In this document: one piece after another, positions 1,406 to 14,012 of the stretch
Position numbering within the stretch: position 1 is the stretch's first letter
Layout of the letters: each line of letters begins with the position of its first letter
Assembly: GCA_029942265.1 (NCBI GenBank)
Contig: JAOZTO010000018.1
Location: forward strand, 1 to 14,012
DNA length: 14,012 nucleotides
Direction of reading: 5' to 3'
Origin: Desulfocapsa sp.
GTDB lineage: Bacteria; Desulfobacterota; Desulfobulbia; Desulfobulbales; Desulfocapsaceae
Notes under the pieces: model-generated
Seen by the model: the letters and a program-made list of their open reading frames with translations, nothing else
The model's database searches: none
Told to the model about the DNA's origin: nothing
Made by a program: the position numbers and the translations under genes

Positions 1406-2221
1406 TCAGCCAACCGCTCCCTTGACAATTTCAGAATCAAAATAGTTCACCGACATACCGGCATCCACCACAACTGTTTGTGCCGTAATCCCGGAAGATC
1501 TTGGGGAAAGTAAATACGCAGCAAGATCAGCCGCCTCAGAAGTTTTAAGAGCTTTTTTTCGTAAAATTGCTTTTTCGGCATAAAGATAACTATCCACATA
1601 CCCTGGGATTCCAGCAGATGCAGACGTTTTCAGTAAACTTGGTGCCACCGCATTAAAGCGTACATCTGAAAATGACGAAAATGATTTGGCAAGAAAACAG
1701 ATCGAAGAATTCAACGCTGCTTTAATTGGTGCCATATATCCATAATTCTCAGCAGCCATACTTGTTGTAGAGATTGAAATAGTAACAACGGAGGCATCGT
1801 TTGCTAACAGCTCACGAAAATGGTTACAAATGGAAATAAAGGAAAAGCAGGATATGTTAAACGCCTGAAGAAAATCCTGTTTCAAGGTGCCATGAAACGG
1901 CTTTAACCCTTCTGAATAATTTGCATACGCAATGGAGTGAACAAGGCCATCGATACGTCCACTTTCTGATTCACTCACAAGGGCTGCAATTTCATCACGA
2001 ACACTAATAATATTTGCCTCATCTTCTACATCACAAAGAAAGACAGCCGATTCTGGAAAGAGATTTCGTGCCGCTTCAGCACGTTCTTCAGACCGAACAA
2101 CATGAATAACAGTAGCACCTTCTTCAACAAGTACCTTGGCAATGGCTGCGGCTACTGACTTTTTATTGGCAAGTCCAAACAGCAAAAACGTCTTACCTTC
2201 AATTTTTAAAAAACCCATCAT
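1406..2221 (-). CDS. Enoyl-ACP reductase (FabI)-like short-chain dehydrogenase, divergent
   Basis: A 271-aa Rossmann-fold protein of the FabI branch of the SDR superfamily. FabI reduces trans-2-enoyl-ACP with NAD(P)H in fatty-acid elongation. FabI marks seen: the cofactor loop GLANKKSVA (residues 16-24) in place of the classical GxxxGIG, CDVEDE (63-68), VHSIAYA (94-100), and Tyr160-x6-Lys167, the FabI spacing rather than the classical Tyr-x3-Lys. Odd point: aligned to E. coli FabI (Tyr146, Tyr156, Lys163), the position of Tyr146 is Ile150, inside a Ser/Thr-rich stretch. The enzyme may therefore use a different substrate. The start overlaps the cyclase stop as ATGA; a second ATG follows at once, so the exact first residue (1 or 2) is open. 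The overlap implies translational coupling to the diguanylate cyclase. Confidence 0.8.
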   Translation of the reverse strand: MMGFLKIEGKTFLLFGLANKKSVAAAIAKVLVEEGATVIHVVRSEERAEAARNLFPESAVFLCDVEDEANIISVRDEIAALVSESESGRIDGLVHSIAYANYSEGLKPFHGTLKQDFLQAFNISCFSFISICNHFRELLANDASVVTISISTTSMAAENYGYMAPIKAALNSSICFLAKSFSSFSDVRFNAVAPSLLKTSASAGIPGYVDSYLYAEKAILRKKALKTSEAADLAAYLLSPRSSGITAQTVVVDAGMSVNYFDSEIVKGAVG

Positions 2222-2937
2222 TTTCTCTCAGGAGCATATACTTCTATACGATTACGCCCGTTTTTCTTAGCCATATACAAAGCTTTATCAGCATGTTGAA
2301 CCAGGCTACTATGATCGAGCAATTTATTTGGAATAATTGTTGCGATGCCAATACTAATAGTAATATAAGAGGCTACAGCGGATTGTTCATGGGGTATTTG
2401 AAGCTGTGCAATTTCAATCCTGGCATTTTCGGCAACGGAATACGCAGAGTGTCTGTCACTTTCAGGAAGAACATATACAAACTCTTCACCACCATACCGT
2501 GCCACAGTATCTGCGGCGCGATGTATAACCATCTGCAATGTTTCAGCGACTCTTTGCAAACAACGATCTCCCGCAGGATGTCCATAGCAATCGTTGAACA
2601 ACTTAAAGTAGTCAATATCAACCATAATAACTGATAGAGGTTGCCTACTGCGACGGCAACGTCGCCATTCCTGTTCCAGAATTCCATCATGAAAGCGACG
2701 ATTGGGAATACCAGTTAAGCCATCGAGCGTGGAAATTTTCTGTAAAACAGTATTGGCTTCCCCGAGACTACGGTTGATTTTCTCCATTCTGACAAACTGC
2801 TCAACCACCAAGTCTGCTGTGATTGATGCTGCTTTTCTCGATGCCAGCACTTCTTTATATAAAAGAGCATTTTCACCAAGCAACTCTTCCCTGCTTTTTA
2901 GAGAAGATGCTTTATCAGGGAACCAATTTTTAGCCAT
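2218..2937 (-). CDS. Diguanylate cyclase (GGDEF domain, N-terminal coiled coil, no sensor domain)
   Basis: Predicted to make cyclic di-GMP from two GTP. This 239-aa protein has a ~70-residue charged helical N-terminus, likely a coiled coil, then one GGDEF domain: DGLTGIPNRR (72-81), the metal-binding MVDIDYFKLFND (105-116), and GGEEF (149-153), an active variant of the signature. RxxD (Arg140-Asp143) sits five residues before it, the position of the product-inhibition I-site. There is no PAS, GAF, receiver or transmembrane segment, so the input must come from a partner protein. It overlaps the hydrogenase protease gene by 8 bp and the FabI-like gene by 4 bp; GGAGG lies 6 bases before its ATG, inside the protease gene. 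That context makes the [NiFe] hydrogenase the likely partner. Domain call is firm; coupling to hydrogenase is inference. Confidence 0.93.
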   Translation of the reverse strand: MAKNWFPDKASSLKSREELLGENALLYKEVLASRKAASITADLVVEQFVRMEKINRSLGEANTVLQKISTLDGLTGIPNRRFHDGILEQEWRRCRRSRQPLSVIMVDIDYFKLFNDCYGHPAGDRCLQRVAETLQMVIHRAADTVARYGGEEFVYVLPESDRHSAYSVAENARIEIAQLQIPHEQSAVASYITISIGIATIIPNKLLDHSSLVQHADKALYMAKKNGRNRIEVYAPERK

Positions 2938-3346
2938 TCAATGCCTCCAAAGCCATCCGGGCACCAGATGCAATTGCTGTCGAATCGGCCAAGCCATCCA
3001 TTCCAACAAGAATCACCTCGACTTGAGGAGTAATACCAAGTGCAGGGAGACACAATAAAAGATACTGTAATCCTTCCGAATGCCCATACTCAACCATGTT
3101 GCATTGAATAAATTCATCCCATAGCAATGTGTGGACTTTGTCAGGTTCTCCAAAACCATGGATACGATCAACAACCACAACCCGATTGGCCGTTTCAAAA
3201 TGATGCAGTAAATCAATACCGGCAAGTCCTCCATCAATCACTTCCACATCAGATGGAAGAGATTTCATGAGGAGATGGTCATATACCAGTGGCCCAAAAG
3301 AGTCATCAGGGCAATAACGATTTCCAGCACAAAGTATTTTGTTCAT
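2930..3346 (-). CDS. Hydrogenase maturation protease (peptidase M52 family)
   Basis: A 138-aa endopeptidase of the HyaD/HybD/HupD family. These enzymes bind the nickel of a loaded large subunit and clip its C-terminal tail, closing the active site. The N-terminal GNRYCPDDSFGPLV (8-21) matches the family motif GNxxxxDDGxG. By position, Asp15, Asp60 (in VVVVD) and His89 would be the nickel-contacting residues corresponding to Glu16, Asp62 and His93 of E. coli HybD; the Glu-to-Asp change is conservative. Its ATG shares one base with the stop of the large-subunit gene (TAATG), and its own end overlaps the cyclase start. A dedicated protease fits the 17-residue tail on the adjacent large subunit, and argues that this hydrogenase is processed, unlike the H2 sensors of the HupUV/HoxBC type, which lack the tail. 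Confidence 0.92.
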   Translation of the reverse strand: MNKILCAGNRYCPDDSFGPLVYDHLLMKSLPSDVEVIDGGLAGIDLLHHFETANRVVVVDRIHGFGEPDKVHTLLWDEFIQCNMVEYGHSEGLQYLLLCLPALGITPQVEVILVGMDGLADSTAIASGARMALEALNG

Positions 3347-4860
3347 TAACTAGCACCAAAACGAACACGTCCGAGGCTCTTACCATTCTTGCTAACAGCA
3401 TGCACAGAACACACCATACACAGATCAAAGCTGCGTACTACATGGCCTACTTCTACGGGGTTGGTGGAATCCATCACCTCTGTTCCAATCAGTGCTTCTT
3501 CAATGGCTCCACGGTTACCTGAATCATCACGGGGAGACGCATTCCAAGTTGTGGGAGCAATAATCTGATAATGTTCGATACGACCATGCGACAGATGCAA
3601 CCAGTGGCCAAGAAACCCGCGAGGTGCCTGCACACTGCCAAAACCATATCCATCAACAATTTCTCCAGTCGAAGTATAAAAAGGAGCTGTCAGATCGATA
3701 TCGCCAAACCAGCCATCCATCAATGGCAGCAGACGAGCCGGTCTTGTCAGACGTGCCAGCTCACGTGTAAGAGCAGAGGTGCCTGATTGTGACGTCAGCG
3801 ATTGAAAGAGATTGTCTTCATTCACCATAAGCTCAGCAAGTGGGCCTGTTTCAACTGCTTGATCAGCGTAACGTGGCGCTTTACACCAGGAATACTTCTC
3901 CGAATCTTCACGAATAACAGGTTGAGCTTCACTGTCCATGGGATGGAAGCTTTTATCGGCACCCAAATACTGCGAAAACCGGATATGTTCAGAAATTTCT
4001 TTCTCAAAGAATTCCTTGTGATTCCCCTCGGTAATAACACCTCCGGTTACAGCACCTCCAGATGCAACGCCTGGGAGACCATGTTCCGGTACAGCAAGAA
4101 AAGAGTCGTATCCCTTGCCCATAAAATCCAACCCAAATTCACGGCCACATCGAATCAGAAATCCGAGATCGCCTTCAGAGTGCTCCTGTTCTTCCTCTAA
4201 CCATAAATCCAGCTGTCCTTCACTCTGCACCTGTTGCCATCTTTCAATGGAACAGCCGAGAATTGACTTCTCATACCAGCGACGAAATTCACCGAGAATC
4301 ATTTGACACTGACGCAAATCAGCCCCACTTGGTTCTGAAGTAAGTCCACCCGGCACAATAAACGACGAGTGTGGCCACTGTCCACCAAGGATGGCAATAA
4401 TTTCAGGTATCTTCTTGCTTGCCTGGATCACCTTAATAACTGATGTGCCCCTGAATGGCTCAAATCGTCTAACAGCTTCTTCGTGCAGGCTTGTTCCCTT
4501 ATATTTTTTATTTGTTAAATCAGCGGCAAACATCAACGCAACATGACGCACATCGTTTTGTAATTTTTCAGCAGCAAGCACAAGATGTCTGATAAGTTGA
4601 CCGTTATAGGGAGCTATCGCACCGGAAAGATTCTCAAGAGCCCTCGCTGCTGCCAGCAAATGGCTTGTACTGCATATACCACAAACCCTGGGAGTTATAA
4701 CAAGGCTGTCCATGGCAGCACGTCCCACCATCATCTTCTCAATTCCACGGTACATGGTGCCTATCATCCAGGCATCCGTCACAACACCATTATCAACAAT
4801 AACCTTTACTTCTAGGTCACCTTCAACACGATTTAATGCCATTTGTATTGTTTTTGCCAT
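3346..4860 (-). CDS. [NiFe] hydrogenase large (catalytic) subunit, group-2-like
   Basis: Carries the NiFe(CN)2CO active site that splits or senses H2. The 504-aa protein has the L1 motif RVCGICSTSH (Cys60, Cys63) and the L2 motif DLCMVCSVH (Cys481, Cys484, His487), giving the four nickel-ligating cysteines. L2 normally starts Asp-Pro-Cys; here Pro is Leu480. After His487 comes a 17-residue tail, presumably removed by the protease encoded next. The N-terminal block (LNRVEGDLEVKV, 9-20) and the CMVC form of L2 are reminiscent of group 2 (uptake/sensory, cytosolic) enzymes more than periplasmic group 1; this subgrouping is by eye. AAGGAT stands 8 bases before the ATG, 38 bp after the small-subunit gene. 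No hyp maturation genes or cytochrome b partner lie in the window. Confidence 0.96.
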   Translation of the reverse strand: MAKTIQMALNRVEGDLEVKVIVDNGVVTDAWMIGTMYRGIEKMMVGRAAMDSLVITPRVCGICSTSHLLAAARALENLSGAIAPYNGQLIRHLVLAAEKLQNDVRHVALMFAADLTNKKYKGTSLHEEAVRRFEPFRGTSVIKVIQASKKIPEIIAILGGQWPHSSFIVPGGLTSEPSGADLRQCQMILGEFRRWYEKSILGCSIERWQQVQSEGQLDLWLEEEQEHSEGDLGFLIRCGREFGLDFMGKGYDSFLAVPEHGLPGVASGGAVTGGVITEGNHKEFFEKEISEHIRFSQYLGADKSFHPMDSEAQPVIREDSEKYSWCKAPRYADQAVETGPLAELMVNEDNLFQSLTSQSGTSALTRELARLTRPARLLPLMDGWFGDIDLTAPFYTSTGEIVDGYGFGSVQAPRGFLGHWLHLSHGRIEHYQIIAPTTWNASPRDDSGNRGAIEEALIGTEVMDSTNPVEVGHVVRSFDLCMVCSVHAVSKNGKSLGRVRFGAS

Positions 4861-4898
4861 TGCTATTTATCCTTTGGGTGCCTTTAGTTTTCAATTAC

Positions 4899-5834
4899 TT
4901 ACACTCTGTTCTTCCTGCTAGTCAGTCGTTCAGGAGCGGCAGCGGCGGCCATTCCTTTGTAGGCAAGATAATGGGCACGACTCACACCTTTGGGGAGTTC
5001 GAGTGGAACATCAACAATATTGGGAGTATGAAAGAAAGCATGTTCCTTTGGAAAATCAGGTTGTGTACAACCAAAACAGGGAACGCCTGCATTGGTTTTT
5101 GAATTACGCTGATTCCAAAGCACCTTATTGCAAGGGCCGTAACTGAGAGGGCCTTGGCAGCCAAGATGGAAAAACATACATCCCCGTCCGCCAAAATCGT
5201 CCTCTTCCACACGATACTCATGGTATTCGTTTCGGGTACACCCTTGATGGACGAGCATACTGTACCACTCCTCAGGGCATTGTAGCTCGTTGAGTATGGG
5301 CATTTTTCCTTCACTGATCATGCAAAGGACATCTTTTAAAATTGCAGGGTGAACAGGACACCCCGGAAGATTGATAACAGGTCGATCTCTTCTTGAACGA
5401 AAGCTCTTTCCTAAAACTCCGCCACATTCATCCTTAAGAAATTGTAGACCATTGGCTCCTGTTTCTCCAATATTGCCTATACCACCAAAACTAGCACAAG
5501 TTCCCACCGCAATAATAACAGCAGCACGATGTGCCAGATCTTTAACAAGAGCCAGCTTCGGTTCTCCCATATAGGTATCATACAAACCAGAACCATCAGG
5601 CCCTGTGGTTACAAAACCCTCGACTATCAGAATATCCAGTGTTTTCCTACCGCTTCGCAGGGTGTTAATCAATTCTTCCTGCTCCAGTAAATCCCCACTG
5701 CTAAACGATGGGTGCCAAAGCATTTCCAGATTATGCTCTCGAAATAGTTCTAACATATCCGGAGTTTCCATTCCCAGAAAACTCATGGTGTCACCGCCGC
5801 AGGAACCACATTGTAGCCAATAAACCGTTCGCAT
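4899..5834 (-). CDS. [NiFe] hydrogenase small subunit, cytosolic group-2-like, with Asp at a proximal-cluster ligand position
   Basis: Electron-transfer subunit with three Fe-S clusters. I start it at the ATG at 5834-5832 (MRTVYWLQ), 311 aa: GGAG lies 6 bases upstream. The frame is open further upstream to 5897, but that extension looks hydrophobic and non-homologous. There is no twin-arginine signal and no C-terminal anchor, so it is a soluble cytosolic protein. Proximal cluster candidates: Cys12, Cys113 (GTCASFGG) and Cys159 (NLPGCP); the expected second Cys of CxxC is Asp15, and an extra Cys9 is present. Distal cluster: His196, Cys199 (HxxCxR), Cys219, Cys226. Medial cluster: Cys235, Cys253, Cys256. 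The closest pattern I know is cyanobacterial HupS, where Asn stands at the Asp15 position. First gene of the operon; no convincing promoter was seen. Confidence 0.95.
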   Translation of the reverse strand: MRTVYWLQCGSCGGDTMSFLGMETPDMLELFREHNLEMLWHPSFSSGDLLEQEELINTLRSGRKTLDILIVEGFVTTGPDGSGLYDTYMGEPKLALVKDLAHRAAVIIAVGTCASFGGIGNIGETGANGLQFLKDECGGVLGKSFRSRRDRPVINLPGCPVHPAILKDVLCMISEGKMPILNELQCPEEWYSMLVHQGCTRNEYHEYRVEEDDFGGRGCMFFHLGCQGPLSYGPCNKVLWNQRNSKTNAGVPCFGCTQPDFPKEHAFFHTPNIVDVPLELPKGVSRAHYLAYKGMAAAAAPERLTSRKNRV

Positions 5835-10180: not shown

Positions 10181-10510
10181 TTATAGTTGGTCAAGGATTT
10201 TCTGGATTTCATTCTTTTGGATATTGCTTTGTTTTGCTTTGGCATACATCGTTAGTAAGATAATTTCTTTATTTTCTAAGATCGTATAGTAAATAAGTCT
10301 AAAGCCCCTACTTTTCCCTTTTTGTTGATCAGAAGAGGGGACACGAACCTTATAGATTTCGTTATCAAATCCAGAAATTGGATATCCTATAAATTGACCT
10401 GCCTCGAGTTCTTCCAGGAACGGTAAAAAATCTTTTTTAATACGACGGTATTTTTTTGAGAGTTTCTTGATATTTTTGATAAAAACATCTGTTGTTTTGA
10501 CGTTGTACAT
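10181..10510 (-). CDS. RelE/ParE-superfamily (HigB-like) toxin
   Basis: 109 aa, likely an mRNA-cleaving type II toxin. The fold is suggested by a basic helical N-terminal half (residues 8-35), then IYKVRVPSSDQQKGKSRGFRLIYY (53-76), where KVRV, the K-G-K-S-R-G-x-R loop and the following strand match the RelE/HigB-2 pattern, and LLTMYAKAKQSNI near the end. The ATG lies 5 bases after the antitoxin stop and has no ribosome site of its own, so its translation is probably coupled to the antitoxin. The antitoxin-first order is the usual one for RelBE and ParDE, not for HigBA. The biochemical target (ribosome-dependent RNase versus gyrase) cannot be decided by eye. Confidence 0.85.
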   Translation of the reverse strand: MYNVKTTDVFIKNIKKLSKKYRRIKKDFLPFLEELEAGQFIGYPISGFDNEIYKVRVPSSDQQKGKSRGFRLIYYTILENKEIILLTMYAKAKQSNIQKNEIQKILDQL

Positions 10511-10515
10511 TGAGG

Positions 10516-10773
10516 TTAATCGTTAAGACTAGAAAGAACGTCTCGGGCAGAGTGGAGTTCTTGCTTTCCGTTTTTGTAATTTCCAACCTCTCTCAAAGCT
10601 TCAACGATTGAACTAGTTACATCTTCCATGTCGTATTCATTGTTGAGAGAATCGTCATTCAGTTTTTCCAATACGTAATCGCGCATAGAAATCCCTCGAA
10701 GCAGAGCTTTTGCTTTGATTGCTTGGTGTTGTGATTCAGACATTTCGACAACAAGTCTTTTTGCAGCTGGCAT
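10516..10773 (-). CDS. Ribbon-helix-helix-type antitoxin
   Basis: 85 aa from the ATG at 10773 (MPAAKRLVVEM). I prefer this to an in-frame ATG five codons upstream because GGAGG lies 8 bases before it and overlaps that upstream ATG. The N-terminus RLVVEMSESQHQAIKAKALLRGISMRDYVLEKL is a strand-helix-helix typical of Arc/CopG repressors: it would form the DNA-binding dimer. The acidic rest (~45-85) would wrap and neutralise the toxin. Together with the toxin it should repress its own promoter, which has the consensus hexamers at 10796-10823. Function as antitoxin is inferred from domain type and gene order. Confidence 0.82.
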   Translation of the reverse strand: MPAAKRLVVEMSESQHQAIKAKALLRGISMRDYVLEKLNDDSLNNEYDMEDVTSSIVEALREVGNYKNGKQELHSARDVLSSLND

Positions 10774-10795
10774 ATTTAGAACCTCCATATCTCAG

Positions 10796-10950: not shown

Positions 10951-11193
10951 TCAACTGATCAAATATGGAAGATCATTCATTGTTATGGCTTTTCGTGAAC
11001 AGAAGAAAGTACACACATCGCAATACCAGCAATCATCCCTGTACTTCATATACGGATATCCTTTGCTATCCATGGCCAGAACATCCATGGGGCAGTATTC
11101 TGCGCAGATACCGCATTTATTACACCGATCAGGGTCAACGGTAATCCACTCGTAATTTGATTTTTCTATCGCATTCATATTAAAAGGGCTCAT
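10951..11193 (-). CDS. Two-cluster [4Fe-4S] ferredoxin (AprB-like) partner of the flavoprotein
   Basis: 80 aa. It binds two [4Fe-4S] clusters: CNKCGICAEYCP (Cys24, 27, 30, 34) and CWYCDVCTFFCS (Cys55, 58, 61, 65). In the second motif the usual Pro after the last Cys is Ser66, and Trp56 follows the first Cys. It would carry electrons to or from the AprA-like flavoprotein, whose stop codon it follows with no gap; AAGGAG lies 6 bases before its ATG, inside the flavoprotein gene. It is about half the length of AprB of sulfate reducers (~150 aa), lacking the long C-terminal tail that wraps AprA. Hence the pair is a relative of adenylylsulfate reductase, not that enzyme itself. Cytosolic; substrate chemistry unknown. 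Confidence 0.92.
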   Translation of the reverse strand: MSPFNMNAIEKSNYEWITVDPDRCNKCGICAEYCPMDVLAMDSKGYPYMKYRDDCWYCDVCTFFCSRKAITMNDLPYLIS

Positions 11194-13056
11194 TTATTTC
11201 TCCTTACCTGGCATAAATCTTCTGGGTGTTTCCATACCTTGCTTTGCAAGCGTGTCACTCATCCATTTGTCCTCTTTTGGGTTCACCCAATTTGCTTCTT
11301 TCTTGAATGGCGTTCCAACATCAAAAGATACCTCTGGGTATTTGTATTCCATCTTAGTTGGGTAATCCCATTGCAACTCAGGTACCTTCCTTTTGGAGAG
11401 TACCATGGAATCCCCTTCCTTCTTAATCACCACCCATTGTCCATCCCATTCCGGTTTGTTTTCTGGAATATCGATACGCCAATGCTGAAATCCCCACCTG
11501 CTTTCAGTACGAAAGAGGCTTGAACGAGCCATCATTTCACCAACAGTCAAGATACACTTGATTTCATAGGTTTTCAAAAGATCATGGTAATCAACAGCTT
11601 TGATACGCGGCATATCCTCTTTTTTGATTCTCTCCATCCACCACTGGGCGATATTTAGAAATTCTGGGTTTTTAGGCGGCTTCATATAATACTGAACTCG
11701 TGTCCTTGCCTTGTATTCAACCTGATCAGTTGGAAGCCCGTTATCCCTTCTAAGAGGCTCTTCGAAGGTATTGATTTCATCACTTATCCATTTGTGCAGC
11801 CCTTTATACTCCGCATTTTCGTCACAATTACGGGCATATTCAACCGCATTTTCACCAATCAGCCCTCCCATGACCAATGCACCACCGAGATACGAATGAG
11901 GTAAACCACCATCAACATCACCAGCAACGTAAAGCCCCTTAACGCTTGACGCACCGTTTTTGTCTGCCAGTACACCAGACGAGCTATGTCCTCCGCAAAC
12001 GCCAATCTCTTCAGAAAAAGCAAGCTCGATAGCATCACCATCCCGATAGTCCTGGCCTCTGTTCTGATGGAATATTTTCCTGCTGGTTCGTTCGTTACCC
12101 CATAGGATTTTTTCAATAACTTTGATCGAGTCTTCAGGAAGATGACTCATTTTCAGATGTGTGGGACCTCGTCCTTCTGCAAAGGCTTTCCATGCACCCA
12201 TTTTACTGTCACCGGATGAATAACCATGCGACCATGTGGAATCACCGTTTCTGTCTGTTCCATATGCACCTCTTGGCACTGCAACATACCCACAACCTGG
12301 CCCCTGATGATCTTTAATAAGAGAGTTTGCCTGGAAACATTCCATATTCACAAGTTCAGCTCCAGCTTGATAGGCCATATAATAACCATCACCAGCATTT
12401 CCTGGAAATTCATAGCACCCGACAAGATACCCTGAACTGGCAAGTCCCATACGTGAAGCACAACCAGTGGTCAGACAGACACTTTGTGTTTTGAAATAGT
12501 AATATTCTCCATTGCGGTGATTGAACGCAAAAACTCCTTTTACCGCATTATTTTCACTAATTATCTGTAAGGCAGCTGTACGATTATAAATTGTAGCTCC
12601 AGTATCCCGCACAGCTTTTGCCAATGCCCGCTTCATCTCTTCGCCATCCATAGGCAACAGAAGTGGTTTTTGAATAGGATGCAGATAAAACAGCTGATAA
12701 TTCCCATCTTCATCCACAGGAAAAAGACTGCCTTTTTCTCTATCCATGATTTTTTCAAGATCCTTTAGCAGTTGTGGACAGCGTTTTCCAAACTCATAAG
12801 AAACACTCTGGTCAAGAATGCCTTCGGTCACTTTTGTCGTGTGTTCTACAACGTCTTCCGGATAACTGTAAGGGGGGACAGACATGGTGTTGAGTGCATC
12901 CATACCCCGTCCGGCGCCGCCACTGGTATCCATGATACTTTTATCAAGCACAGTGATTTTTATATTTGCGTCTGCTTCCCGTGCTTTGATCGCCGCCATT
13001 GTTCCAGCAGCACCTGCGCCGATTACAACAACATCTGTTTCAATTATATGGTACAT
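11194..13056 (-). CDS. AprA-like FAD-dependent oxidoreductase (fumarate reductase/adenylylsulfate reductase flavoprotein superfamily)
   Basis: 620 aa from the ATG at 13056 (MYHIIETDVVVIG), with AAGGAG 7 bases upstream; an earlier in-frame ATG at 13095 overlaps tctA and lacks support. FAD-binding parts: GAGAAG (13-18), SGGAGRGMDALNT (45-57), NAGDGYYMAYQAGAEL (220-235), and VKGLYVAGDVDGG...GGLIGENAVEYA (372-408). The GRGPTHLKMSHLPE block and the middle region resemble AprA and its homologues more than FrdA/SdhA: the fumarate-reductase HGANRLGGNSL motif is replaced by HSYLGGALV. Its role would be a two-electron oxidation or reduction of a substrate, with electrons passed to the adjoining ferredoxin. 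The coding region lies 4 bp after tctA, so the substrate may be what that transporter imports, perhaps a carboxylate. Not a canonical AprA; reaction unknown. Confidence 0.88.
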   Translation of the reverse strand: MYHIIETDVVVIGAGAAGTMAAIKAREADANIKITVLDKSIMDTSGGAGRGMDALNTMSVPPYSYPEDVVEHTTKVTEGILDQSVSYEFGKRCPQLLKDLEKIMDREKGSLFPVDEDGNYQLFYLHPIQKPLLLPMDGEEMKRALAKAVRDTGATIYNRTAALQIISENNAVKGVFAFNHRNGEYYYFKTQSVCLTTGCASRMGLASSGYLVGCYEFPGNAGDGYYMAYQAGAELVNMECFQANSLIKDHQGPGCGYVAVPRGAYGTDRNGDSTWSHGYSSGDSKMGAWKAFAEGRGPTHLKMSHLPEDSIKVIEKILWGNERTSRKIFHQNRGQDYRDGDAIELAFSEEIGVCGGHSSSGVLADKNGASSVKGLYVAGDVDGGLPHSYLGGALVMGGLIGENAVEYARNCDENAEYKGLHKWISDEINTFEEPLRRDNGLPTDQVEYKARTRVQYYMKPPKNPEFLNIAQWWMERIKKEDMPRIKAVDYHDLLKTYEIKCILTVGEMMARSSLFRTESRWGFQHWRIDIPENKPEWDGQWVVIKKEGDSMVLSKRKVPELQWDYPTKMEYKYPEVSFDVGTPFKKEANWVNPKEDKWMSDTLAKQGMETPRRFMPGKEK

Positions 13057-13060
13057 AAAT

Positions 13061-14012
13061 TTACTCCTTCGTAGTGATATTTCTATTTTTAACATTCTTG
13101 TATATGGACCATGAGATTGCAGCTATGGTCAGTAAAAAGAAAAAACCGGCAATCGGTTTCGTCACAAAAACTGTTGGATCTCCGCCTGATATTTTTAACG
13201 CCTGACGAAGATACACTTCTATCATCGGCCCTAAAATGAATGCTATCAGAAGAGACGCTGGACTAAGCCCCCATTTTTTCAGGAAATAGCCAACTATTCC
13301 AAACAACACCATCACCTTAACCTCAAACAGACTCTGATGTGTGCCATAAGCACCAATACTGCACAGAACAAGAATAATGGGAAACAGGTACGAACGTGGA
13401 ATTGAAATAACCCACTGGCCTATCTTCATCAACGGCAAGGGAATAAAGAGCATGAAAAAATCAGAAACGATTAAAATCATGAACAATCCATAAATAGTGG
13501 CAGGGTTTTCCTGCATAAGCATAGGCCCTGGCGACAGGCCATGGATCATAAACGCACCCATAATAACAGCTGCTGATAATGCTCCTGGAATTCCAAGTGT
13601 AATGAGCGGAATAAGACTGGTTCCACACACTGCATTGTTGGCAGCTTCCGGTGCAGCGATTCCTTGTAACGATCCTTTACCGAATTCATCAGGGTTTTTG
13701 GAGAATTTTTTGGCCTGATCGTATCCGATAAATGCCGCAGTAACACTGCCAACGCCCGGCAGAGCGCCACAAAAGGAACCAAGACAACTTGATTTGAAAA
13801 TTGTACCAATACAACTCTTATATTCTTTCCAAGATACCCGCTGGTCAGCCGGATCTTTAGATTGCTTCAACCCTCTGCCCTTAACATCCTTCCAGCCCTC
13901 TTCCATCTGAAGCAGGACTTCACTCATAACAAGTAGCCCGATGAGCATAGCCAGCAGACCAATCCCTGCATCAAGCTCTAGCGATCCGAAAGTGAATCTG
14001 CGTTGAGTCGTT
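13061..14012 (-). CDS. TctA-family permease of a tripartite tricarboxylate transporter (5' end beyond the window)
   Basis: The large membrane subunit of a TTT (TctABC) carrier, which with a periplasmic binding protein imports carboxylates using an ion gradient. The frame is open from the window edge (…RRFTFGSLELDAGIGLLA) for 316 codons; the family is ~500 aa, so about the last 60% is here. Family blocks: GALPGVGSVTAAFIGYDQA, FGKG...GIAAPEAANNA, LITLGIPGALSAAVIMGAFM and HGLSPGPMLM, followed by several membrane helices and a final one ending IYKNVKNRNITTKE. The small subunit TctB and binding protein TctC would be expected upstream, outside the window. The flavoprotein gene follows after 4 bp, so transporter and redox pair form one operon. 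Confidence 0.95.
   Translation of the reverse strand, partial: TTQRRFTFGSLELDAGIGLLAMLIGLLVMSEVLLQMEEGWKDVKGRGLKQSKDPADQRVSWKEYKSCIGTIFKSSCLGSFCGALPGVGSVTAAFIGYDQAKKFSKNPDEFGKGSLQGIAAPEAANNAVCGTSLIPLITLGIPGALSAAVIMGAFMIHGLSPGPMLMQENPATIYGLFMILIVSDFFMLFIPLPLMKIGQWVISIPRSYLFPIILVLCSIGAYGTHQSLFEVKVMVLFGIVGYFLKKWGLSPASLLIAFILGPMIEVYLRQALKISGGDPTVFVTKPIAGFFFLLTIAAISWSIYKNVKNRNITTKE

What the first reader, a model, noticed from the sequence alone, without database searches (positions are those of the whole stretch)
2218..5834. Cytosolic [NiFe] hydrogenase translationally coupled to a sensorless diguanylate cyclase: candidate H2-to-c-di-GMP module
Seen: small subunit, large subunit, maturation protease and a GGDEF cyclase in one direction, with gaps of 38, -1 and -8 bp. 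The cyclase has intact GGEEF and an I-site but only a short coiled coil for input; the hydrogenase has no Tat signal, no membrane anchor and no electron-acceptor subunit. Known: sensory [NiFe] hydrogenases (HupUV/HoxBC) signal through a histidine kinase, and from memory the HydDB scheme includes a group 2c of putative sensory enzymes near cyclases. Inferred: H2 oxidation by this enzyme gates the cyclase by direct contact. The retained C-terminal tail plus own protease sets it apart from HupUV/HoxBC.
Basis: partly seen in the sequence, partly recalled or inferred. Interest (0 to 1): 0.82.

Follow-up and report, generated by a model that had tools for sequence, protein, structure and literature searches.

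The report
H2-sensing hydrogenase wired to c-di-GMP cyclase
This stretch of DNA encodes what looks like a hydrogen sensor that passes its signal straight to an enzyme making the messenger c-di-GMP, through a short helix that related bacteria use to connect the same kind of sensor to other signalling enzymes.

Summary
In detail: hydrogenase small subunit, large subunit, maturation protease and GGDEF cyclase, spacings 38, -1, -8 bases. But the cyclase is not sensorless. Residues 14-66 form a ~50-residue helical module (I call it the adapter) that also opens the histidine kinases behind related hydrogenases. A kinase-only profile finds 7 of 7 cyclases, a cyclase-only profile 44 of 44 kinase-type ORFs; reversed decoys stay below 9 bits. 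In 257 genomes of the order there are 41 strong matches: 40 directly behind such a hydrogenase, one at a contig edge; in a phylum sample, 10 of 10 new matches too. In the large-subunit tree the cyclase type is one clade (100/100) within a signalling-linked clade sister to 2a and apart from 2b. HydDB already lists a putative diguanylate cyclase-linked class, 2c, where the window most likely belongs. The adapter, and its joining to GGDEF without kinase or receiver, I did not see described in my searches. Likely mechanism: the hydrogenase's H2/redox state changes its contact with the adapter and thereby cyclase dimer geometry. Contact, H2 dependence and sign are inferred. New variant of a known, putative kind.

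The parts
4902..5834 (-). HupS, [NiFe]-hydrogenase small subunit (311 aa), no signal peptide seen; Fe-S ligand positions filled, with Asp15 at the fourth proximal-cluster position
   Evidence: Pfam PF01058, PF14720; nearest PDB chain Huc small subunit 7uur, E 1.2e-74; ligand columns (which columns are ligands is recalled)
3349..4860 (-). HupL, [NiFe]-hydrogenase large subunit (504 aa), all four Cys of the Ni site, C-terminal tail after His487
   Evidence: Pfam PF00374; nearest PDB Huc 7uus/7utd, E 3e-113; motifs and tail
2933..3346 (-). hydrogenase maturation protease (138 aa)
   Evidence: Pfam PF01750; TIGR00072 57.1 bits against cut-off 47.45
2740..2898 (-). adapter module (cyclase residues 14-66): helical segment shared with hydrogenase-linked histidine kinases
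   Evidence: 83.6 bits, E 2.5e-23 against profile A1, the only match in the own genome; kinase-only profile gives 55.3 bits; no Pfam family covers it
2221..2937 (-). diguanylate cyclase: adapter + stalk + GGDEF domain (residues 70-230), GGEEF and I-site RAAD intact, no REC or PAS match
   Evidence: Pfam PF00990 181.6 bits, the only family matched; model helix 16-75 then GGDEF; nearest solved protein WspR 3bre by sequence and fold
1409..2221 (-). SDR / enoyl-ACP reductase-like gene overlapping the cyclase stop by 4 bases; perhaps co-transcribed, not part of the conserved module
   Evidence: Pfam PF13561; in L062 the ORF next to the cyclase is a 169-aa one on the other strand

Best explanation
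A cytosolic H2-sensing (not energy-conserving) [NiFe] hydrogenase docks onto the N-terminal adapter helix of the cyclase encoded behind it. H2 turnover or the redox state of the hydrogenase changes that contact; the helix runs into the stalk and shifts the GGDEF dimer between inactive and active geometry, so that c-di-GMP reports H2 or reducing pressure. In relatives the same adapter feeds a hybrid histidine kinase, in one large clade followed by a REC-GGDEF protein. Here kinase, receiver and phosphotransfer are absent and the adapter is joined directly to GGDEF. Shown: gene order, intact catalytic motifs, homology of the adapter between kinases and cyclases, its tie to this hydrogenase clade, single clade of the cyclase type. 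Inferred: physical contact, H2 dependence, absence of electron transfer to the cyclase, kinase ancestry. Sign of the response: unknown.
For: Adapter homology both ways: kinase-only profile (18 rows) finds 7 of 7 cyclases at 35-58 bits; cyclase-only profile (6 rows) finds 44 of 44 kinase-type ORFs at 24-55 bits; best reversed decoy 8.4 bits in 5328 ORFs and their reversals, one unrelated ORF at 22.7 bits with the kinase-only profile. By Pfam 42 of the 44 have HisKA and HATPase_c, the other two (L103, L133) are short fragments; 7 of 7 cyclases have GGDEF alone. Tie to the hydrogenase: 41 matches at 63-90 bits in 257 genomes, 40 directly downstream of HupL, 1 at a contig edge; 10 of 10 new matches in a phylum sample of 395 genomes also behind HupL. 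Own genome: 42 HATPase_c and 12 GGDEF matches but one adapter. c-di-GMP theme: in 16 of the 18 long-kinase loci a REC-GGDEF gene follows (Pfam on all 16; the other 2 contigs end inside the kinase), also in L126; GGDEF-EAL in two sister loci. Tree: signalling-linked clade 100/99, cyclase type 100/100. The adapter core is better conserved among 10 cyclases than GGDEF (0.78 against 0.61) and its conservation has an alpha-helical period (p 0.0004 at 100 degrees; 9 angles tried). No PAS match in 7 of 7 cyclases and 18 of 42 adapter kinases (same calls). Precedent: SiaC binds the stalk helix of SiaD and activates it (PMC8457831, passages).
Against: No interaction, activity or H2 response was measured for any member here. 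The adapter could be a self-dimerising stalk only. Single-chain models cannot show docking; the cyclase model is poor at the hinge (blocks 61-70 and 71-80 average 54 and 46 pLDDT) and the kinase model has pTM 0.40. The adapter clade has only moderate support (83/80), and in the first tree L099, which lacks the adapter, fell inside it. The 24-row profile was built from loci already known to sit behind hydrogenases, so recall within the order is partly circular. Hydrogenases without the adapter in the same wider clade (L099, L158, L159) and outside it (L100, L106) also neighbour signalling genes, so the adapter is not needed for such linkage in general.
Confidence: 0.7

Rival explanations
1. Ordinary uptake hydrogenase: it oxidises H2 for metabolism and the cyclase is only co-transcribed.
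For: Fe-S ligand positions, tail and protease of a catalytic enzyme are kept; nearest solved relative is Huc, a group 2a uptake enzyme (the group label is recalled).
Against: In the tree's 39-row clade the gene behind HupL(-protease) is a kinase, cyclase, GGDEF-EAL protein or SpoIIE phosphatase in 39 of 39 rows; the adapter occurs only behind this hydrogenase in the genomes searched, one contig-edge case aside; the clade is apart from 2a.
Confidence: 0.1
2. The adapter is just a dimerising stalk; the signal reaches the output by another route, for example via the protease or a diffusible redox carrier.
For: It is a predicted continuous helix running into the output, and coiled-coil stalks are usual in cyclases (recalled). 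24 of 42 adapter kinases also have a PAS match, a possible second input.
Against: It is sequence-specific: E17, A24, T28, V32, Q35 (profile numbering) invariant in 24 rows; the only other match in 257 genomes at E <= 0.01 is a 19.6-bit CpxP/LTXXQ-type protein. No protease lies between HupL and the adapter gene in L125, L127, L128, L130, L131, L132, so a protease contact is not general.
Confidence: 0.12
3. The sensor reads cellular reducing pressure rather than H2, the hydrogenase working in the H2-evolving direction or idle.
For: The genome has hydrogenase large-subunit matches on four other contigs, so internal H2 turnover is plausible; nothing in the sequence fixes direction.
Against: The related group 2b regulatory hydrogenase of R. 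eutropha responds to H2 (PMC5665086, passages).
Confidence: 0.08

Closest known systems
HydDB [NiFe] group 2c, diguanylate cyclase-linked (putative) (PMC5037454 Table 1, passage)
   Same: Group 2 hydrogenase next to c-di-GMP enzymes, apart from 2a and 2b; [quoted passage not shown]
   Different: Two gammaproteobacterial loci in the sister clade (L158, L159) carry PAS-GGDEF-EAL without the adapter; the window has adapter-GGDEF alone
Regulatory hydrogenases HoxBC/HupUV with kinase HoxJ/HupT (group 2b)
   Same: Cytosolic HupSL-type sensor plus signalling partner
   Different: Window keeps the C-terminal tail, an own protease and His in RVCGICSTSH, and has Asp where five of five 2b rows have Cys; no kinase here
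Huc, M. smegmatis group 2a (7utd, 7uus)
   Same: Best sequence match among solved structures
   Different: Asp instead of Asn at HupS position 15; other clade than the 2a rows; signalling neighbour
SiaD with partner SiaC (7e6g, PMC8457831)
   Same: Small stalk-GGDEF protein whose stalk is bound and activated by a partner protein
   Different: Partner is unrelated (DUF1987); homology of the stalk motifs was not tested; NCBIfam SiaD model matched at 162 bits, under its cut-off of 290
WspR / PleD REC-GGDEF
   Same: GGDEF domain closest to WspR by sequence and fold
   Different: No receiver domain matched

Membership tests
HydDB group 2c | HydDB classifier call or reference-set tree | not testable with these tools
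   Classifier and reference set are not held; Greening et al. 2016 not held
HydDB group 2c | Linked to diguanylate cyclase | tested here: met
   8-base overlap with a GGDEF gene; same overlap in L062 and L063, 14 bases in L064
HydDB group 2c | L2 motif SFDxCLVCTVH (consensus quoted in PMC4853749) | tested here: inconclusive
   Window SFDLCMVCSVH differs at two positions
HydDB group 2c | Phylogenetically apart from 2a and 2b | tested here: met
   39-row signalling-linked clade 100/99, sister to six 2a rows, 2b outside; no row is a named HydDB 2c reference, and the 2a/2b labels are mine
Group 2b regulatory hydrogenase | No C-terminal tail on the large subunit | tested here: not met
   17-residue tail; the two 2b rows examined for it (L026, L027) end at the last His; that this defines 2b is recalled
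Group 2b regulatory hydrogenase | Gln in place of a His conserved in other [NiFe] hydrogenases (PMC5665086, passage) | tested here: not met
   Window RVCGICSTSH; that the Gln is this position is recalled (L026 and L027 fail the H pattern)
Group 2b regulatory hydrogenase | Histidine kinase partner next to it | tested here: not met
   GGDEF protein without HisKA or HATPase_c match
Group 2a uptake hydrogenase | Falls in the 2a clade | tested here: not met
   Six 2a rows form their own clade 100/100 without the window
Active diguanylate cyclase | GGDEF domain with intact GG(D/E)EF | tested here: met
   PF00990 181.6 bits; RYGGEEF invariant in 10 rows; activity not tested
Response-regulator cyclase (WspR, PleD) | N-terminal receiver domain | tested here: not met
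   No PF00072 match

The most novel reading that the evidence does not exclude
A previously unnamed ~50-residue helix is a dedicated docking adapter of one hydrogenase clade. Evolution has plugged different outputs (hybrid kinases, phosphorelay kinases, a bare cyclase) onto it, and in the window's lineage it lets a metalloenzyme control second-messenger synthesis directly, by allostery, with no phosphorelay, PAS domain or cofactor between gas and c-di-GMP.
Probability: 0.55. Interest if true: 0.8.

Novelty: new variant of a known kind. Interest (0 to 1): 0.63.

Why it matters
Group 2c hydrogenases were listed in 2016 as putative H2 sensors acting through c-di-GMP, with undetermined role. The adapter gives a concrete, small piece to test, and the window's version is a very short form of the pathway: sensor, helix, cyclase. 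If it works it links H2, a currency of syntrophy and sulfur metabolism, directly to a messenger known for controlling attachment and motility, and would give a compact design principle for an H2 biosensor.

Tried and rejected
Rejected: lone, one-genome coincidence (six genomes plus one contig-edge case). Rejected: generic coiled coil (reversed decoys and the own genome's other kinases and cyclases do not match). Rejected: adapter shared with 2b kinases; A1 gave no match in 20 of 20 loci L138-L157 of the gammaproteobacterial class search (1.5 kb flanks, so some downstream genes are cut; not all of them are 2b), none in L026 and L135, and 4-6 bits in other genes of L027, L136, L160. The weak match G127:C1:2303204 (19.6 bits) is an LTXXQ/CpxP-type protein. 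Led nowhere: literature searches found no paper; promoter-like sites equal the shuffles (13 against 12.8); terminator-like sites 14 against 4.7 expected, not followed.

The second (53 rows) dropped 14 further rows to save time, including the outgroup L001, and added six. Both agree on the cyclase and long-kinase clades. They differ on L099: inside the adapter clade next to L132 on a long branch, with L158/L159 outside it. I rely, which has L099's nearer relatives and no long-branch warning.

Full report
What is there. The minus strand of 2218-5834 holds a four-gene unit as described: HupS, HupL, maturation protease and a 239-residue GGDEF protein. Spacings are 38, -1 and -8 bases. Both NiFe-site CxxC motifs are intact, the large subunit ends in a 17-residue tail behind the last His, and the small subunit has the Fe-S ligand positions filled. 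The cyclase has GGEEF and an RxxD I-site. The gene row goes on: the cyclase stop overlaps a FabI-like SDR gene, then pyrF.

The organism. The closest named relative of HupL in the species collection is in a 'Desulfocapsa sp.' MAG (73%, L009). Its contig has the length (4818) of the matching contig of G105, which the tool calls same genus, so the window's genome probably lies near Desulfocapsa (inference). Four other contigs have hydrogenase large-subunit matches; there are 12 GGDEF, 42 HATPase_c and 5 PilZ matches, so candidate c-di-GMP receptors exist.

Neighbourhoods. HupL matched (E <= 1e-60) at 49 places in 45 of 257 genomes of the order. I read longer stretches of all: the window, 40. Three arrangements recur among those with the adapter. 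(i) S-L-(P)-cyclase: window, L062-L066 and, cut by a contig edge so that the hydrogenase is not seen, L102; L065 has no protease in the unit. (ii) S-L-P-kinase of ~945 residues (PAS-HisKA-HATPase_c-two REC-Hpt) then REC-GGDEF: 18 loci; REC and GGDEF are matched in the second gene of 16, and the other two contigs (L090, L098) end inside the kinase. (iii) S-L-(P)-shorter kinase, most with one REC.

The adapter. phmmer with the window's cyclase matched those kinases not in a GGDEF domain but over its residues 14-61 or so, at the start of the kinase (best E 4.5e-10, L071). An alignment of 24 such segments has five invariant positions, E17, A24, T28, V32, Q35 in profile numbering. To guard against a generic coiled coil I built profiles from each output class separately: the kinase-only profile (18 rows) scores 7 of 7 cyclases at 35-58 bits, the cyclase-only profile (6 rows) scores 44 of 44 kinase-type ORFs at 24-55 bits; the best reversed decoy has 8.4 bits and one unrelated LTXXQ-type protein 22.7 bits with the kinase-only profile. 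Pfam finds HisKA and HATPase_c in 42 of the 44; L103 and L133 are short fragments. It finds only GGDEF in 7 of 7 cyclases, and no family over the adapter in the window's protein.

Specificity. In 257 genomes profile A1 gives 42 matches at E <= 0.01: 41 at 63-90 bits, one at 19.6. Of the 41, 40 lie on the same strand directly behind HupL or HupL-protease, and one (G038) has an ORF starting 164 bases from its contig end and cannot be judged. The profile was trained on loci of this order, so a separate test matters: in 395 genomes of the phylum there are 12 matches in 11 genomes, 2 already known; the 10 new ones, in 9 genomes, all lie directly behind HupL or, in L133, a HupL piece. In the own genome 42 HATPase_c and 12 GGDEF matches go with one adapter. 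The adapter was not found in three genomes with 2a-type hydrogenase searched whole, nor in 20 loci of a gammaproteobacterial class search or in the 2b-type loci looked at.

Tree. With 53 large subunits, 2b rows lie outside, six 2a rows form a clade, and its sister (100/99) is a clade of 39 rows, each followed by a signalling gene by Pfam: 36 with the adapter (83/80, moderate), and three without, namely two gammaproteobacterial loci with PAS-GGDEF-EAL (L158, L159) and L099 with PAS-SpoIIE. Cyclase type 100/100, long-kinase type 99/93. The output labels need six changes, the fewest possible. As the other adapter branches carry kinases, a kinase ancestor for the cyclase type is the simplest reading, but the forks around it are not resolved. 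An earlier tree (61 rows) agrees on these two clades but puts L099 inside the adapter clade on a long branch. My labels 2a and 2b rest on the tail, on annotation (HupU in L135, L136) and on recall.

A marker in HupS. The fourth proximal-cluster position (window residue 15) is Asp in 46 of 46 adapter loci, 3 of 3 loci L099, L158, L159 and 3 of 3 loci L100, L101, L106; Cys in 5 of 5 2b and Asn in 6 of 6 2a rows. That this position is a ligand is recalled.

Mechanism. 7 of 7 cyclases have no PAS or REC match, and 18 of 42 adapter kinases have no PAS match (24 have one). So the adapter seems a sufficient input in those 25 proteins, and it has no invariant Cys or His to hold a cofactor. This points to contact-driven allostery rather than electron transfer (inference). 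The single-chain models show the adapter as part of one helix, 16-75 in the cyclase (weak around 61-80) and 10-106 in kinase P0143 (pTM 0.40). Among 10 cyclases the adapter core is better conserved than the GGDEF domain (0.78 against 0.61), and its conservation follows a helical period. A close mechanical precedent is SiaD, a stalk-GGDEF protein whose stalk is bound by SiaC, turning an inactive pentamer into an active dimer (PMC8457831, abstract and passages); SiaD-SiaC is rank 16 among the structural matches, WspR first.

Known or new. HydDB names class 2c as diguanylate cyclase-linked, role undetermined (PMC5037454, passages). [quoted passage not shown] So an H2-to-c-di-GMP hydrogenase class is already proposed. 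In my ten searches of the open library no title or abstract start describes the adapter, the kinase-linked relatives or a phosphorelay-free version. I opened seven papers (six by passages, one by a section), so a mention inside an unopened paper is possible; subscription papers and Greening et al. 2016 could not be read.

Noticed in passing
window 1409-2221 and 663-1382: FabI-like SDR gene overlapping the cyclase stop by 4 bases, then pyrF; in L062 the ORF next to the cyclase is on the other strand.
   Followed up: partly
L099:9754-11163: [NiFe] hydrogenase unit followed by a PAS-SpoIIE phosphatase, a pairing that resembles the phosphatase-linked [FeFe] class C3 of HydDB.
   Followed up: partly
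L158:7858-10659, L159:5342-8458: Gammaproteobacterial S-L-P units followed by PAS-GGDEF-EAL proteins without the adapter; possibly the classic 2c form.
   Followed up: partly
L069, L074, L096, L104 downstream of the kinase: A small sulfite-reductase-like protein (NIR_SIR) is the next ORF behind the short hydrogenase-linked kinase in 4 of the 10 loci whose downstream gene was scanned.
   Followed up: no
L071:11615-13360: A GAF-HD domain (HD_5) protein lies two ORFs behind the adapter kinase, again a possible c-di-GMP output; the 130-aa ORF between has no Pfam match.
   Followed up: partly
window 4902-5834, HupS His205, His223, His288: His in 45, 42 and 43 of 46 adapter loci. Outside: 205 is His in 3 of 3 loci L099/L158/L159 but in no 2a or 2b row; 223 is His in 3 of 5 2b rows; 288 in 1 of the 3 loci L099/L158/L159. 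Candidates for a clade-specific ligand or interface.
   Followed up: no
L101, L106, L107, L108, L111, L112: Tail-less HupL with His in RICGICSGSH; HupS is of Asp type in the two checked (L101, L106) and Pfam on L106 shows a PAS-HK-REC partner next door. Neither 2b nor 2c by these marks.
   Followed up: partly
L103:971-2297: Second, broken hydrogenase unit (HupL C-terminal piece, protease, adapter-PAS fragment) in the same genome as L065.
   Followed up: no
window 10954-13948: Ferredoxin and fumarate/APS-reductase-like flavoprotein genes beside a TctA-type transporter gene.
   Followed up: no
window 10181-10788: Two adjacent small ORFs that look like a RelE-type toxin and its antitoxin (by eye, not tested).
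   Followed up: no
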